NCBI GenBank assembly: GCA_947628465.1
Contig: CANQZZ010000082.1
Coordinates: 1-6,213 of the forward strand
Length of the DNA: 6,213 nucleotides
From: an uncultured Clostridia bacterium
GTDB taxonomy: Bacteria > Bacillota_A > Clostridia > TANB77 > CAG-508
Reading direction: 5' to 3'
Under the pieces are notes generated by a model. It saw nothing but the letters and a program-made list of their open reading frames with translations. It was not told the origin of the DNA and made no database searches. Positions within the stretch are counted from its first letter, which is position 1. The number at the start of each line of letters is the position of its first letter. Shown one piece after another: positions 886 to 6,213 of the stretch. Both the position numbers and the translations under genes were made by a program.

Positions 886-2196
886 ATGTCAAATAGAAAT
901 AGTAATCAAAACGTTAGATGTTCATTTTGTGGTAAAGCACAAGAAATGGTAAAAAGAATTGTAGCAGGCCCTAATGCATATATTTGCGACGAATGTATTG
1001 CAGTTTGTAATAATATATTAGAAGATGAGCATTATGAAGATGATTTAGGATATGAAGATGTAAAGTCTGAGGATATACCTACACCAGCAGAAATAAAAGG
1101 CATATTAGATGAATATGTAATAGGACAGGAAGATGCTAAAAAAACATTATCTGTTGCAGTATATAATCACTATAAACGTATATCATGTGATGAAATAATA
1201 GATGATGTAGAAATACAAAAAAGTAATGTATTACTTCTTGGACCAACAGGATGTGGTAAAACACTTCTTGCACAAACTCTTGCAAGAATCTTAAATGTTC
1301 CATTTGCAATAGCAGATGCAACAACTCTTACAGAAGCGGGATATGTTGGTGAAGATGTTGAAAACATACTACTTAAATTAATACAAGCAGCAGAATATGA
1401 TATTCAAAAAGCACAAAAAGGTATTATTTATATAGATGAGATAGATAAAATAACAAGAAAGTCTGAAAATCCATCAATCACAAGAGATGTAAGTGGAGAA
1501 GGTGTACAACAAGCATTATTAAAAATAGTAGAAGGAACTGTTGCATCAGTACCACCACAAGGAGGAAGAAAACATCCTCATCAAGAATTCTTACAAATAG
1601 ATACATCAAACATATTATTCATTTGTGGAGGAGCTTTCGAAGGACTAGAAAAAATAATAAAAGATAGAGTTGGAAAAAAATCTATGGGATTTGGAGCTCA
1701 AATAGAAAGTAAAAAAGAGTTAGACAAATATAAAATATTTGAAGAATTATTACCACAAGATTTATTAAAATTTGGACTAATACCAGAATTTGTTGGAAGA
1801 CTTCCAATAATTGCAACATTAAAAGAATTAGATAAAGAAGCCTTAATTAATATTGTAACAAAACCAAAAAATGCATTAACGAAACAATATAAAAAGTTAC
1901 TAGAGTTAGATGGGGTTGATTTAGAATTTGAAGATGAAGCACTTGAGTCAATTGTAGAAAAAGCAATAGAAAGAAATACAGGAGCAAGAGGTCTTCGCTC
2001 TATAATAGAAGATATTATGAGAGATATAATGTTTGATATACCAACGAATCCTAAAATAGAAAAATGTATTATAACAAAAGAAACAGTGGAAAAGAAAGCT
2101 GGACCAAAATTAGTTATAAACGAAAACAAAGAAGTTAAGAAAAAGAAAATAAAAAAGAAGCCTATTAATAATCAAAATCAAGGTGAAACAGCATAA
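886..2196 (+). CDS. clpX: ATP-dependent Clp protease ATP-binding subunit ClpX
   Basis: This is the hexameric AAA+ unfoldase that recognises substrates and threads them into ClpP. The product is 436 aa, a full-length member. The order of elements is: C4 zinc-binding domain with Cys12, Cys15, Cys34 and Cys37; Walker A GPTGCGKT (119-126); GYVG pore-1 loop (152-155); Walker B IIYIDEID (180-187); RKH pore loop (228-230); ClpP-docking loop at 267-269; arginine-finger segment EFVGRLP (301-307); and sensor-2 GARGLR (366-371). The docking tripeptide reads MGF rather than the more familiar IGF or LGF. The C-terminus ends in a lysine-rich tail (about 416-425) that looks unstructured. The SD AAGGAGA (874-880) lies inside the end of clpP, 5 nt before the ATG. 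A strong terminator follows, so no lon gene is attached here. Confidence 0.98.
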
Positions 2197-2201
2197 GAAA
2201 T

Positions 2202-2243
2202 AAAATTAGACAAATTTAGTAAAATAAATTTGTCTAATTTTTT
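2202..2243 (+). terminator. Rho-independent terminator of clpP-clpX
   Basis: A perfect stem of up to 17 bp pairs 2202-2218 with 2225-2241 around a 6-nt loop (GTAAAA). The 3' arm runs directly into six T residues. Only two pairs are G-C, so strength comes from length. It starts 6 nt after the clpX stop codon. Confidence 0.92.
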
Positions 2244-2366: not shown

Positions 2367-2393
2367 AATTATTTAAATTGGGAGGAAAATTAA

Positions 2394-3299
2394 ATGAAGA
2401 AAAAAATCTTAACAATTGTAACATTATTAGTAGTATCATTAATTATAGGCGTTATTGGTACTACAGTAATGGCAGCTGAGTTAGCAGAAGCAACAGTAGT
2501 AGATGCAACTAAAGAAGATACTAAACTTGCAACTGAGATAAAAGAACCAACAATAACAAGCAATACAAATGGTTCTGAACAAACAATAGAAGTTGTTTAT
2601 ACTATTGCAGCATTAAAAATTATTGATGGAAATGATGCAGATAGACCAGATGGTTATGGATGGATAGGAGTTAATGTTAAACGTCCAGACGGAGCAACAA
2701 AAGGTGTTGAAAATGATGGAACTGTATATGAGGCAAATGCATTTGATCAATTCTTTGGAATCAATGTAGAAAAATTACAAAAAGCTGTAGAAGATGGAAC
2801 AGGCTACATATCATATACAAAATCATATGATTGGAAATATGATGATGATAATACAGGAGTAACAAAAACAACATTAATAGTAAAAATTAAAGCAGAAGGT
2901 GTTACACTTCAAGATAAAGATGATAGTGAAAGTGACGATAAAACATTATGGAATAAAGATGAGTATGTAACATATAAATTAGAAGTGTTAGAAGAAGAAT
3001 TAAAAGAGCAAGGATTAGCACAAAAAGACATAGAAGAAAGATTACAAATAGCAGAAGAATTATTAGCAGACCAAGATTTAACAATAGAACAATTAAAAGC
3101 ACAAATTGCAGAATTAACAGCAGAAAAAGAAGCTCCATCAGAAGTAGAAAAACCAGTAGAAGAAGACAATACATCAAAAACTCCAGAAGAAAAAGACAAT
3201 ACACCAAAAACAGGTGTAGTAGATGTAGCATTAATCTCATCAGTAGTATCTATGATATCAGTAGCTGGAATAGTAACAGTAAAAAAATATAGCAAATAA
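2394..3299 (+). CDS. Sortase-anchored surface protein with coiled coil, TPKTG motif
   Basis: This is a secreted protein of 301 aa with no recognised enzymatic domain. In order: a signal peptide (MKKK, hydrophobic 5-25, likely cleavage VMA/A after residue 27); a globular, probably beta-rich ectodomain (about 50-175) containing a DRPDGYGWIG segment; an acidic helical stretch likely to form a coiled coil (about 190-246); a Pro/Glu/Lys spacer (247-269); TPKTG (270-274); a hydrophobic segment (about 275-296); and the tail KKYSK. This is the layout of a sortase substrate, with Thr in place of the usual Leu of LPxTG. Class B sortases of clostridia are known to accept motifs of the type (S/P)PxTG, so the sortase at 4606-5445 is the likely partner. 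The SD GGGAGG lies 8 nt before the ATG. Both ends match the gene at 3547-4488. Ligand and function are unknown. Confidence 0.9.
   Translation: MKKKILTIVTLLVVSLIIGVIGTTVMAAELAEATVVDATKEDTKLATEIKEPTITSNTNGSEQTIEVVYTIAALKIIDGNDADRPDGYGWIGVNVKRPDGATKGVENDGTVYEANAFDQFFGINVEKLQKAVEDGTGYISYTKSYDWKYDDDNTGVTKTTLIVKIKAEGVTLQDKDDSESDDKTLWNKDEYVTYKLEVLEEELKEQGLAQKDIEERLQIAEELLADQDLTIEQLKAQIAELTAEKEAPSEVEKPVEEDNTSKTPEEKDNTPKTGVVDVALISSVVSMISVAGIVTVKKYSK
3165..3211 (+). repeat. Short tandem duplication creating a second, imperfect sorting-like motif
   Basis: A 17-nt unit at 3165-3181 recurs at 3195-3211 with one difference and a 30-nt period. The copies encode DNTSKT and DNTPKT. Only the second gives TPKTG followed by a hydrophobic segment. 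The first has Ser where the motif needs Pro and is followed by PEEK rather than G. Confidence 0.8.
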
Positions 3300-3300
3300 T
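3222..3300 (+). repeat. Direct repeat, copy 1: sorting-signal module
   Basis: This 79-nt stretch covers the hydrophobic anchor, KKYSK tail, stop codon and one following base. It matches 4411-4489 at 77 of 79 positions with no gaps. The two differences both change an amino acid (Ser/Ala and Ile/Val); every synonymous site is identical. Similarity drops immediately upstream and ends just after the stop codon. Confidence 0.95.
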
Positions 3301-3333
3301 TATAAAGAATATAATTAAAATATCAAAATAAAG

Positions 3334-3374
3334 AAATAGTATTAGATTAGAAATAATTTAATACTATTTTTTTT
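3334..3374 (+). terminator. Rho-independent terminator of the first surface protein gene
   Basis: A 16-bp stem (3334-3349 with 3354-3369, one G-U pair) is capped by a GAAA tetraloop at 3350-3353. A T-run to 3374 follows the 3' arm. The next gene therefore needs its own promoter. Confidence 0.93.
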
Positions 3375-3468
3375 ATGTAAAAGATGGTAGATTGCCCATT
3401 GTAGCAAGTCTTAGATAATGGTTATGTGAATTTTAAAATACAAAAAGTAAAAAAATTTAAAAAAAGCC

Positions 3469-3497
3469 TTGCAAAAAAAATAATAATGTAATAATAT
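3469..3497 (+). promoter_or_regulatory. Likely sigma-A-type promoter for the second surface protein gene
   Basis: A -35 TTGCAA (3469-3474) and a -10 TAATAT (3492-3497) are separated by 17 nt, with an A-rich tract upstream. Transcription would start near 3504. The stretch between the preceding terminator and this promoter (3375-3465) contains no convincing gene or known RNA element, only a weak CCATT/AATGG pairing (3396-3400 with 3417-3421). Confidence 0.65.
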
Positions 3498-3542
3498 GAC
3501 TTAGTAAACAAATGATTAGATTTTTTTAAAATAAGGGGGAAT

Positions 3543-3565
3543 TTAAATGAAGAAAAAAATCTTAA
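3543..3565 (+). repeat. Direct repeat of 23 nt spanning the start codon (other copy 2390-2412)
   Basis: Positions 3543-3565 are identical to 2390-2412. The block covers the last bases before the ATG and the first codons, encoding MKKKIL in both surface proteins. It is the 5' counterpart of the 3' repeat and shows that export as well as sorting ends are shared. Confidence 0.9.
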
Positions 3566-4488
3566 TGGTTACATTATTAGCTGTATTGTTTGTGTTAGCA
3601 CTTGCATTAACAAATACAGTAAAAGCAACAGATATCACAATAACAGATGTTACATCTTTATCAGGAGGAACAGTAAGTAGTTCAACAGAAGGTAAAGTAT
3701 ACACACTAACACTAACAAAAACAGACATCAGTAAACTTGTATGGCATGCAATCGATGATCCAACAGGACAAGCTGGCGTTGATAGAGTAGCAAATGGTTG
3801 GGACATAGGATTTAAACTTACTTTATCTAGTGATTTTACCAAGGGGCAATTAAAAGCAGTATATACAGATTATGAAGGAATAGTTAGAACAAATTCAAGT
3901 TGTACACCAGACACTAATGCATCTGAATATAGCGCTTGGGTATCTCTTAATGAAAATAAATTAGAGGGTCAAACAGAGGTATTTCAATTAGCTAAATTTG
4001 AATTCGAAATCGGTACAGATAAAGCAACTGTAATAGTTAAAGTAGATCCTACAGATGTAGAACTAAAACTACCAGAGGATGGAAGTGTTGTAAAAGTAAC
4101 AGTTGATGGTTATGAGTTTACAATGAAAAAAGATAAAACTTTAAGTGCTAATGAAGAAAATGGTGGATTATCAGAAGCAGAAGTAGCAGATTTAGAAGCA
4201 TTAATGACAAAAGAAGGTTATAAATTTGTTGGTTTATTTATTAAAGGAACAAATACTAAATTTACACTAGACCAAGTAATATCAAGTGATTTGGAATTAG
4301 AAGTAAGATTTGAAAAAATACCAGAAAAAGCAGTAGAAGAAGAACCAGTAGAAGAACCAGCAGAAGAAAAACCAGCAGAAAAAGATGATACACCAAAAAT
4401 GGGTACAATAGATGTAGCATTAATCTCATCAGTAGTAGCTATGGTATCAGTAGCTGGAATAGTAACAGTAAAAAAATATAGCAAATAA
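3547..4488 (+). CDS. Cell-surface protein with InlB-type repeat and atypical TPKMG sorting motif
   Basis: This is a secreted protein of 313 aa. In order: a signal peptide with probable cleavage VKA/T after residue 27; an ectodomain (about 28-175) with a DRVANGWDIG segment resembling the DRPDGYGWIG of the 2394 gene and a similar TVIVKV strand; a region at about 181-257 resembling the Listeria-Bacteroides (Flg_new/InlB B) repeat, recognisable from GYKFVGLFIKGTNTKF and SSDLELEVRFEK, though the usual GW is GL; a Glu/Pro/Ala spacer (258-281); TPKMG (282-286); a hydrophobic segment (about 288-308); and KKYSK. The Met at the fourth motif position departs from the Thr at which sortases normally cleave. 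A single Cys (119) is present. The start is supported by the GGGGGA SD (3535-3540) 6 nt before the ATG. It is probably a paralogue of the 2394 gene with a diverged middle. Function is unknown; adhesion or ligand binding is only a guess. Confidence 0.88.
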   Translation: MKKKILMVTLLAVLFVLALALTNTVKATDITITDVTSLSGGTVSSSTEGKVYTLTLTKTDISKLVWHAIDDPTGQAGVDRVANGWDIGFKLTLSSDFTKGQLKAVYTDYEGIVRTNSSCTPDTNASEYSAWVSLNENKLEGQTEVFQLAKFEFEIGTDKATVIVKVDPTDVELKLPEDGSVVKVTVDGYEFTMKKDKTLSANEENGGLSEAEVADLEALMTKEGYKFVGLFIKGTNTKFTLDQVISSDLELEVRFEKIPEKAVEEEPVEEPAEEKPAEKDDTPKMGTIDVALISSVVAMVSVAGIVTVKKYSK

Positions 4489-4489
4489 T
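4411..4489 (+). repeat. Direct repeat, copy 2: sorting-signal module
   Basis: This is the second copy of the 79-nt block at 3222-3300 (offset 1189 nt, no gaps, two mismatches). It again includes the hydrophobic anchor, the tail and the stop codon, and again ends just past the stop. Confidence 0.95.
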
Positions 4490-4605: not shown

Positions 4606-5445
4606 ATGGCAAAGGGAAAACATGAAAAGACTGGTAAATCAGATAAAAGAAAAATAGAAAGAACTAAATCAAATAGAACTAAAATTAATAAAACTAAATC
4701 AACCAAAAAAAGAATAGTATTATTACTATTAATATTAATCTTTATAATAAGTGTATCTATAACTGCATTCTTTGTATATAACAAATATAAGAATAAAAAT
4801 GAGAATGACGAATTAAAAGAAATATTTAGCAATGTTGAAGAAACTAAACCAAATGAAAGAATAGAAAAAGTAAAAGAATTACAAAAAGAAAATTCTGATA
4901 TAATAGGTTGGTTAGAAATACCTAATAGTAATATAAGTTATCCAGTATTACAATGTGAAGATAATGAATATTATATGACACACAATTATAAAAAAGAATA
5001 TTCAAAAGATGGTTCACTATTCTTAGACAAAGATTACGACTGGAGTATTCCTAGTACAAATCTTTTAATATATGGACACAATAATATAGGTAGCACGGAA
5101 ATGTTTAAAGGATTAGAAGAGTATAATAAAGAAGATTATTATAAATACCATAAAACAATTAGATTAACAACAGATAAAGAAGATGCAGAATACGAAATAC
5201 TAAGTGTATTTTTATCAAGAGTATATTATAAATCTGAAACTAATGTATTTAGATATTATTATTTCATTAATGCAGAAAATGAGGAAGAATTTAATAACTA
5301 TGTAAATGAAGCAAAAAAAGCAAGTTTATATGATACAGGAGTTACAGCAGAATATGGAGATCAACTTTTAACACTTACTACATGCTCGTATCATACAACT
5401 GATGGAAGACTTGCTGTAGTTGCAAGAAAAGTAGAAAACAATTAA
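4606..5445 (+). CDS. srtB: Class B sortase
   Basis: This is a membrane-anchored transpeptidase that cleaves a C-terminal sorting motif and joins the protein to cell-wall peptidoglycan. The product is 279 aa. In order: an unusually long, strongly basic N-terminal tail (1-36) containing a threefold pentapeptide repeat; one transmembrane segment (about 37-58); a linker with acidic and basic helices; and a class B catalytic domain (about 85-275). Class B signatures are NSDIIGWLEIPNSNISYPV (about 96-114), DNEYYMTHNY, GSLFLD and YGHN. Catalytic residues are His158 in YGHN, Cys260 in TLTTC, and Arg268, eight residues later as expected for this class. The type II orientation puts the active site outside. 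The SD GGGGAG (4594-4599) lies 6 nt before the ATG. Its natural substrates are probably the two proteins encoded just upstream. The symbol reflects the class, not proven orthology. Confidence 0.94.
   Translation: MAKGKHEKTGKSDKRKIERTKSNRTKINKTKSTKKRIVLLLLILIFIISVSITAFFVYNKYKNKNENDELKEIFSNVEETKPNERIEKVKELQKENSDIIGWLEIPNSNISYPVLQCEDNEYYMTHNYKKEYSKDGSLFLDKDYDWSIPSTNLLIYGHNNIGSTEMFKGLEEYNKEDYYKYHKTIRLTTDKEDAEYEILSVFLSRVYYKSETNVFRYYYFINAENEEEFNNYVNEAKKASLYDTGVTAEYGDQLLTLTTCSYHTTDGRLAVVARKVENN
4660..4704 (+). repeat. Three tandem 15-nt units in the sortase N-terminal tail
   Basis: Residues 19-33 read RTKSN, RTKIN, KTKST: three successive pentapeptides encoded by similar 15-nt units (each has ACTAAA at its second and third codons). 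They lie on the cytoplasmic side, before the membrane segment. Confidence 0.7.
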
Positions 5446-5659: not shown

Positions 5660-6213
5660 ATGGCAGTAGTTGCAATGAAACAATTACTAGAAGCAGGTGT
5701 ACATTTTGGACACCAAACAAAAAGATGGGACCCTAAAATGGCTGAATATATTTATCAAGCTAGAAATGGTATCCATATTATTGATTTACAAAAGACATCA
5801 AAGAAAATCGATGAGGCTTATGAATTTATTAAGGAAGTAGCTGAAGAAGGAAAAGATATTCTTTTCGTAGGAACAAAAAAACAAGCACAAGAATGTATTA
5901 AAGAAGCAGCTGAAAAAAGTAATATGTTCTATGTTGACCAAAGATGGCTTGGAGGAATGCTTACAAACTTTAAAACAATAAGAAAAAGAGTTGAAAGATT
6001 AAACAAGTTAGAGCAAATGCAAGAAGATGGTACATTTGATGTATTACCTAAAAAAGAAGTTGCTGCATTAAAAAATGAGATGGAAAAACTAGAAAAAAAT
6101 CTAGGTGGTATTAAAAACATGACAAGAATGCCTGGGGCAATGTTTGTAGTTGATCCAAAAAATGAAAGAATTGCTGTATTAGAAGCAAGAAAATTAAATA
6201 TTCCAATTGTTGG
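5660..6213 (+). CDS. rpsB: 30S ribosomal protein S2, N-terminal part (cut by window edge)
   Basis: This encodes small-subunit ribosomal protein S2, which sits at the head-body junction of the 30S subunit and is needed for S1 and mRNA binding. There are 184 complete codons, running off the right edge, about three quarters of the usual 230-250 residues. Family signatures are plain: [22 protein letters not shown] (about 6-27), [16 protein letters not shown] (31-46), [11 protein letters not shown] (67-77), [17 protein letters not shown] (91-107), and [19 protein letters not shown] (about 148-166). The ATG at 5660 is chosen because of AAGGAGG 8 nt upstream; the ATG at 5653 is out of frame and only 1 nt from the SD. 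The elongation factor Ts gene usually follows rpsB, but it is outside the window. Confidence 0.97.

What the first reader, a model, noticed from the sequence alone, without database searches (positions are those of the whole stretch)
2390..4489. Two surface genes with nearly identical ends and diverged middles
The two surface genes share 23/23 nt across the start codon (2390-2412 and 3543-3565) and 77/79 nt across the anchor, tail and stop (3222-3300 and 4411-4489). The roughly 800 nt between are strongly diverged. In the 3' block both differences are nonsynonymous and all silent sites match. Old duplication followed by ordinary drift would instead leave silent differences. This fits recent gene conversion of the ends, or cassette-like replacement of ectodomains between fixed export and sorting modules. 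Homology blocks at both ends could also recombine, deleting about 1.2 kb and fusing the genes.
Basis: partly seen in the sequence, partly recalled or inferred. Interest (0 to 1): 0.7.

Follow-up and report, generated by a model that had tools for sequence, protein, structure and literature searches.

The report
Surface-gene array with swapped ends
Beside a sortase gene in an uncultured Clostridia bacterium sits a small array of surface-protein genes whose outer parts differ while short DNA blocks at their ends are traded between neighbouring genes, a bacterial way of reshuffling surface proteins that is already known from streptococci and staphylococci.

Summary
The window is clpP-clpX-ORF1-ORF2-class B sortase-rpsB. 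Both ORFs look like sortase-type surface proteins: Ig-like domain plus helical stalk (ORF1) or B-repeat-like domain (ORF2). Silent-site identity alone is weak evidence: tails of different genomes differ at only 14% of shared silent positions, so 0 of 22 has p 0.036. Better evidence is a sister pair, G002/G004: ectodomains differ by about 1%, the sortase by 5.4%, both tails by 15.4%, and one tail switches at a single breakpoint from its ortholog's sequence to the other gene's (p 1.5e-4). Two control pairs with one surface gene and equal sortase divergence differ by 2.6% in the tail. So the 3' block is exchanged between paralogs and ectodomains move between lineages. The 5' block is an old locus-wide module (10 of 14 genes), not a recent event here. 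The kind is known (emm/mrp/enn, sdrCDE); this is a new member.

The parts
886..2196 (+). clpX, left flank of the array
   Evidence: AAA_2 and zf-C4_ClpX
2202..2241 (+). terminator-like hairpin after clpX
   Evidence: inverted repeat, 17-nt arms 100% complementary (I12)
2390..2412 (+). 5' end block of ORF1 (leader, start codon, first 6 codons)
   Evidence: identical to 3543-3565; exact 18 nt from the ATG in 10 of 14 array genes
2394..3299 (+). ORF1, 301-aa sortase-type surface protein
   Evidence: ortholog L001_1
2475..2903 (+). ORF1 ectodomain, predicted Ig-like beta-sandwich (residues 28-170)
2955..3131 (+). ORF1 predicted helical (coiled-coil-like) stalk (residues 188-246), similar to the stalks of L003_2, L004_1 and L006_1
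   Evidence: AF2 helices 188-205, 210-226, 231-246; sequence matches
3201..3215 (+). ORF1 sorting motif TPKTG
3222..3300 (+). 3' end block of ORF1: membrane anchor, charged tail, stop
   Evidence: 77/79 to 4411-4489; 7 of 7 discriminating sites match ORF2 rather than ortholog
3330..3373 (+). terminator-like hairpin after ORF1
   Evidence: inverted repeat 90% complementary (I7)
3469..3497 (+). promoter-like TTGCAA-17 nt-TAATAT before ORF2; similar spacer stretches precede array genes in L001, L003 and L006
   Evidence: by eye; spacer similarity; no promoter scan run
3543..3565 (+). 5' end block of ORF2
3547..4488 (+). ORF2, 313-aa surface protein
3628..4056 (+). ORF2 predicted Ig-like domain (residues 28-170)
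4081..4323 (+). ORF2 InlB B-repeat-like domain (residues 179-259)
4390..4404 (+). ORF2 sorting motif TPKMG; Met (atg 4399-4401) in place of the scissile Thr
4411..4489 (+). 3' end block of ORF2
4606..5445 (+). class B sortase
   Evidence: TIGR03064 168.2 bits against cut-off 153.75
5660..6213 (+). rpsB (runs off the window), right flank
   Evidence: Ribosomal_S2

Best explanation
The window holds a two-gene copy of a variable array of sortase-type surface genes between clpX and a class B sortase. Each gene is a cassette: promoter/leader, signal peptide, exchangeable ectodomain, stalk, sorting signal with membrane anchor, terminator. Homologous recombination between cassettes, within a cell and between lineages, overwrites the short 3' anchor block (ectopic gene conversion) and swaps ectodomains between kept ends. 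Unequal crossing-over at the same repeats probably adds and removes whole genes. ORF1 and ORF2 are old paralogs (distantly related Ig-like domains) whose anchor blocks were homogenised after their divergence; the 5' block is an older locus-wide module. Shown: identity of the blocks, a paralog-type tail with a clean breakpoint in a sister genome, ectodomains more alike than their flanks in that pair, copy number 0-3 between genomes. Inferred: RecA-type mechanism, direction of each event, surface exposure, and selection by host or phage as the reason to keep the diversity.
For: Sister genomes G002/G004 (96% identical over 3047 nt of tig-clpP-clpX): gene-2 ectodomain 6 of 708 nt differ, sortase 41 of 765, gene-2 tail 12 of 78 (Fisher tail against ectodomain 4.6e-9); gene-1 tail also 12 of 78; gene-1 ectodomain 15 of 1266 (the part on contig L085 only). 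Silent sites: gene-2 ectodomain 2 of 220, sortase 29 of 235 (p 3e-7). L002_2's tail matches its ortholog L004_2 at the first 7 informative sites and the other gene L004_1 at the last 11 (max-chi permutation p 1.5e-4). Control: two pairs with one anchored gene beside the sortase and equal sortase divergence (5.9%, 5.8%) have tails differing at 2 of 78 each; pooled 4 of 156 against 24 of 156, Fisher p 9e-5 with sites taken as independent. Window: ORF1 tail against ORF2 tail 2 of 78 differ, against ortholog tails 8 and 8 (pooled p 0.039); 7 of 7 discriminating sites favour ORF2. Within-genome tails 0.897 identical against 0.816 between genomes, 0 of 20000 permutations (relatedness not controlled). 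Near-identical signal peptides on different ectodomains in L003_2/L003_3 and L004_1/L004_2. Array 0, 1, 2, 3 genes. L002 clpX-gene1 spacer matches the L003 gene1-gene2 spacer (88.6% over 254 nt), as expected if one gene was cleanly gained or lost. ORF1 and ORF2 ectodomains linked through L003_1 (hhalign probability 92 and 97).
Against: Of 9 breakpoint tests on tails, 3 have p under 0.05 and 2 hold after correction for nine, both being views of the same L002/L004 exchange; the four tests on window and L001 tails gave 0.057, 1 (no variation), 0.061 and 0.40, the two on L003_3 0.40 and 0.87. Within-genome homogenisation is not general: in G002 and G004 the two tails of one genome match at only 67 and 65 of 78 sites, less than L002_2 and L004_1 across genomes (75), and L003_3 is as close to W_2 (74) as to L003_2 (73). 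Tails share most silent sites between genomes, so part of the window's identity is ordinary conservation. W_1 and W_2 tails are about as close to some other genomes' tails (W_2/L001_1 94%, W_1/L003_3 92% of 108 nt) as to each other (92%). The single-gene controls lie at another place in their genomes and are only two pairs. All relatives with a title are MAG contigs; chimeras between strains cannot be fully excluded, and the G002 and G004 arrays each lie on two contigs.
Confidence: 0.75

Rival explanations
1. Old duplication with strong selection on the anchor and start sequence, at the level of amino acids, codons or mRNA, and no recombination.
For: Tails of different genomes keep most silent sites (14% differ) while the sortase shows 12-31%; the start block is nearly invariant across 6 genomes.
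Against: Such selection would not make sister-genome tails diverge at 15.4% while tails of single-gene loci at the same sortase distance diverge at 2.6%, nor give one clean breakpoint from ortholog-like to paralog-like sequence. The exact start block was found only at this array: 8 of 29 pattern matches are exact and all 8 lie here.
Confidence: 0.12
2. Very recent tandem duplication of the whole gene followed by rapid positive selection on the middle.
For: Ectodomains evolve faster in amino acids than flanks (omega 0.35 and 0.18 against 0.06 for the sortase and 0.03 for rpsB, window-L001); ends are nearly identical.
Against: Ectodomains of ORF1 and ORF2 share no alignable DNA and only remote profile similarity; each has its own ortholog in L001 at about 71% amino-acid identity, so the duplication predates that split; omega stays below 1 in all five ectodomain or gene pairs of ORF1 and ORF2 fitted (0.18-0.35).
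Confidence: 0.03
3. Assembly or binning artefact: short-read assembler joining ends of different genes or strains.
For: The titled relatives are MAG contigs; contigs in G002 and G004 break inside the array.
Against: The longest exact run between ORF1 and ORF2 is 44 nt, shorter than a usual short read (recalled). The same organisation recurs in the window, L001, L003 and L006, and the three L003 proteins each occur in 4 contigs. The ORF1 cluster of the window occurs in 3 contigs.
Confidence: 0.08

Closest known systems
mrp-emm-enn genes of the Mga region, Streptococcus pyogenes
   Same: Neighbouring sortase-anchored surface genes with recombination between them giving chimeric genes (PMC9993116, passages read); that they share similar signal and anchor ends around variable parts is recalled.
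   Different: Here the first domains are Ig-like, MucBP-bearing or weakly beta-helix-like, not M-type coiled coils; the locus carries its own class B sortase; no Mga-type regulator was seen in the window.
sdrCDE array, Staphylococcus aureus
   Same: Tandem array of wall-anchored protein genes that loses members by recombination between shared coding repeats (24 isolates lacking sdrD or sdrE or both; PMC7360770, passages read); a recombination hot region (PMC4866539, passages read).
   Different: The shared block there is the SD-repeat region; here it is about 80 nt of anchor, plus start and terminator blocks.
Clostridium difficile SrtB and its (S/P)PXTG substrates
   Same: Class B sortase of a clostridium cleaving PXTG-type motifs between Thr and Gly (PMC4155245, passages read).
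   Different: The motif here is TPXTG and, in ORF2 and both L001 genes, TPKMG; substrates lie in an array next to the sortase.

Membership tests
Sortase-anchored wall protein (PXTG type) | N-terminal signal peptide | tested here: inconclusive
   MKKKIL + hydrophobic stretch ending in A read by eye; AF2 helix 2-22 in ORF2, not in ORF1; no signal-peptide predictor available
Sortase-anchored wall protein (PXTG type), ORF1 | PXTG motif, hydrophobic stretch, basic tail | tested here: met
   TPKTG, then VVDVALISSVVSMISVAGIVTV, then KKYSK
Sortase-anchored wall protein (PXTG type), ORF2 | Thr before the cleaved bond | tested here: not met
   ORF2 has TPKMG; hydrophobic stretch and basic tail present; covalent anchoring of ORF2 is therefore not claimed
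Class B sortase (TIGR03064) | score above curated cut-off and catalytic Cys motif | tested here: met
   168.2 against 153.75 bits; TLTTC motif
InlB B-repeat (ORF2 residues 179-259) | B-repeat fold | tested here: inconclusive
M-protein family (emm/mrp/enn) | M-type sequence | tested here: inconclusive
   no M-family Pfam hit listed for ORF1 or ORF2 at E up to 1; no direct comparison made
Recombining tandem surface-gene array (works like emm/sdr) | exchange between paralogs at shared blocks | tested here: met
   one sister pair with a clean breakpoint and two single-gene control pairs
Recombining tandem surface-gene array (works like emm/sdr) | copy-number variation within a species | tested here: inconclusive

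The most novel reading that the evidence does not exclude
The array is a dedicated diversity-generating site of a gut commensal clade: end blocks are kept as recombination junctions so that ectodomains can be swapped, and the same exchange also spreads changes of the sorting signal itself, such as the Met at the cleavage position (TPKMG) that passed from the ORF2 lineage to the ORF1 ortholog in L001, alongside a change next to the catalytic cysteine of the local sortase (TLSTC to TLTTC). Substrate array and enzyme would co-evolve to a private anchoring code.
Probability: 0.2. Interest if true: 0.68.

Novelty: new member of a known kind. Interest (0 to 1): 0.45.

Why it matters
It extends the emm/sdr style of surface-gene reshuffling to uncultured gut Clostridia with a class B sortase, and gives a clean example in which the conserved sorting-signal block itself is the exchanged piece. 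It also warns that silent-site identity between paralog ends is weak evidence by itself: a sister-genome comparison with single-gene controls is what separates conversion from conservation. If the TPKMG motif proves to be cleaved, it would widen the known substrate code of class B sortases.

Tried and rejected

Rows left out: the tail analysis used 14 genes of 6 genomes. Further tail matches in G004:C95, G005:C50, G010, G014:C18 and G015:C10, and weaker ones, were not included (not linked to this sortase in the assembly, cut off, or diverged). Proteins without DNA in hand (P0008, P0009, P0012, P0013, P0017, P0018) entered no nucleotide count. The 0-3 copy table covers the window, G001-G004, G006, G010, G017 and G018 (9 genomes); of the 11 other genomes with a handle, G008, G009, G011, G013 and G015 have one anchored gene beside a sortase lying elsewhere, and the rest (G005, G007, G012, G014, G016, G019) showed none by my PXTG motif beside a sortase, ran off a contig, or had no sortase match.
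Full report
WHAT IS THERE. The 6213-nt window reads clpP (284-883), clpX (886-2196), ORF1 (2394-3299), ORF2 (3547-4488), a sortase (4606-5445) and the start of rpsB (5660-). The sortase passes the curated cut-off of class B (TIGR03064, 168.2 against 153.75 bits). No genome is held for the window. The nearest relatives are seven loci of MAGs titled 'uncultured Clostridia bacterium isolate Lapin-...'; that these are rabbit gut is my reading of the name.

THE OBSERVATION. It is correct to the base: 23/23 at the starts; 77/79 at the 3' ends, with both differences nonsynonymous; the DNA between is no more alike than shuffled sequence (48.0% against 45.9% mean, 47.7% maximum of 10 shuffles). Chance is excluded for the 3' block: about 9.8 silent differences would be expected from independent codon choice, none seen.

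THE LOCUS IN RELATIVES. In the genus of L001, 16 of 17 held genomes have a sortase match at E <= 1e-20. At the sortase next to clpX and/or rpsB the number of anchored surface genes is 0 in G017 and G018, 1 in G010, 2 in the window and G001, 2 in G002 and G004 (each read over two contigs, so at least 2), and 3 in G003 and G006 (in G006 an IS3-like transposase pair, not clpX, is upstream). The ectodomains differ: ORF1 type, ORF2 type, types with beta-helix matches below Pfam's cut-off, a 1105-aa protein with five MucBP stretches in L006, and P0009 with a B-repeat match above cut-off. P0002 (ORF2 type) and P0009 share a longest contig of 65,970 nt while P0007 (ORF1 type) is known only from contigs up to 21,062 nt, which hints at strains with another neighbour; I did not have that contig.

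IS IT CONVERSION OR CONSERVATION? It is weaker than it looks. Across 81 between-genome tail pairs 14.0% of shared degenerate codons differ silently (274 of 1957); in 10 within-genome pairs 10.0% (28 of 280). At 14%, no difference in 22 positions has probability 0.036; at the window-L001 flank rates of 15% (sortase) and 19% (clpP) it is 0.028 and 0.010. So conservation explains much of the silence. Tails are more alike within genomes than between (0.897 against 0.816; 0 of 20000 label permutations; this control ignores relatedness). ORF1's tail differs from ORF2's at 2 of 78 sites and from its own ortholog in L001 at 8; ORF2's differs from its ortholog at 8 (pooled Fisher p 0.039). At the 7 sites of the 108-nt tail where ORF2 and L001_1 differ, ORF1 takes ORF2's base every time (p 0.016). 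Against a general rule: in G002 and G004 the two tails of one genome are less alike (67 and 65 of 78) than L002_2 and L004_1 across genomes (75), and L003_3 is as close to W_2 (74) as to L003_2 (73).

THE DECISIVE PAIR. G002 and G004 are 96% identical over 3047 nt of tig-clpP-clpX. Along their arrays the divergence runs: gene-1 ectodomain 15 of 1266 nt, gene-1 tail 12 of 78, gene-2 ectodomain 6 of 708, gene-2 tail 12 of 78, sortase 41 of 765. The tails are the most diverged coding part and the ectodomains the least. L002_2's tail gives the pattern BBBBBBBAAAAAAAAAAA over 18 informative sites, B being its ortholog L004_2 and A the other gene L004_1: one breakpoint inside the anchor (max-chi permutation p 1.5e-4). 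I ran 9 such tests: p = 0.00015, 0.0019, 0.015, 0.057, 1, 0.061, 0.40, 0.40, 0.87; the first two survive correction for nine and are two views of one exchange. Control: two pairs with one anchored gene beside the sortase, at another place in the genome, and the same sortase divergence (G011/G009 47 of 801, G013/G015 45 of 774) have tails differing at 2 of 78 each; pooled 4 of 156 against 24 of 156 in the array pair, p 9e-5 with sites taken as independent. The gene-2 ectodomains of G002/G004 are also too alike for their flanks (silent 2 of 220 against 29 of 235 in the sortase, p 3e-7), so they were probably exchanged between the lineages recently, with breakpoints inside the genes.

THE 5' BLOCK. 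The 18 nt ATGAAGAAAAAAATCTTA occur in 10 of 14 array genes of 6 genomes. In the 17 genomes a pattern for most codings of MKKKI(L/F) found 29 places; the exact 18 nt occurred 8 times, all at this array. It is thus an old module of the locus. Beyond codon 6 ORF1 and ORF2 have different signal peptides, each like its ortholog's in L001 (codons 1-30: 24 and 27 identical). In L003_2/L003_3 and L004_1/L004_2 nearly the whole signal peptide is shared by genes with different ectodomains, so start modules are exchanged too, but not recently in the window.

OTHER REPEATS. The spacers are also shared: L002's clpX-gene1 spacer matches L003's gene1-gene2 spacer (88.6% over 254 nt), and 61 nt after two L006 genes are identical. 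This is where unequal crossing-over could add or drop whole genes.

A CHANGE OF THE SORTING SIGNAL. ORF2, both L001 genes and P0009 have TPKMG; the ORF1-type proteins of the window, P0012 and P0013 and the ORF2-type proteins of L003, L004 and L002 have TPKTG. The simplest history is that Met arose in the ORF2 line and passed to L001_1 by exchange; L001_1 matches L001_2 at the first 8 informative tail sites (breakpoint p 0.061). The sortases of the window and L001 have TLTTC where the 7 others aligned have TLSTC. They are close relatives, so this is one event at most and may mean nothing.

HOW SURE. The exchange of anchor blocks and ectodomains at this locus is well supported by one sister pair and consistent with the rest; the event in the window itself is moderately supported. 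Mechanism (RecA), surface exposure, ligands and the selective cause are inferred. Known parallels are the emm family and sdrCDE (passages read), so the kind is known.

Noticed in passing
window 4399-4401; L001_1, L001_2; P0009: Sorting motif TPKMG with Met at the position where sortases cleave after Thr; codon atg where ORF1 has aca.
   Followed up: partly
window sortase residue 258 and L001 sortase: TLTTC next to the catalytic Cys, where the 7 other sortases aligned have TLSTC; the window and L001 also carry TPKMG.
   Followed up: partly
L006 2526-3598: IS3-like transposase gene pair (by eye from the translations) directly upstream of the three-gene array, where clpX stands in relatives.
   Followed up: no
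L006 5383-8700: 1105-aa surface protein with five MucBP stretches sharing the array's 3' end.
   Followed up: no
L070, L071: clpX and sortase adjacent with no surface gene between; in L070 no rpsB shows downstream of the sortase in the ORF list.
   Followed up: no
L066 near 4959-5067 (G004:C95): A tail of the same kind upstream of miaB/mutS-like genes, at a contig end, so copies may exist away from the array.
   Followed up: no
L001 6346-7657, L003 near 4907, L070 near 4162, L085 near 2681: The clpX reading frame is not whole in the ORF lists of these four relatives, while it is whole in the window, L071 and L077; biology or assembly error not decided.
   Followed up: no
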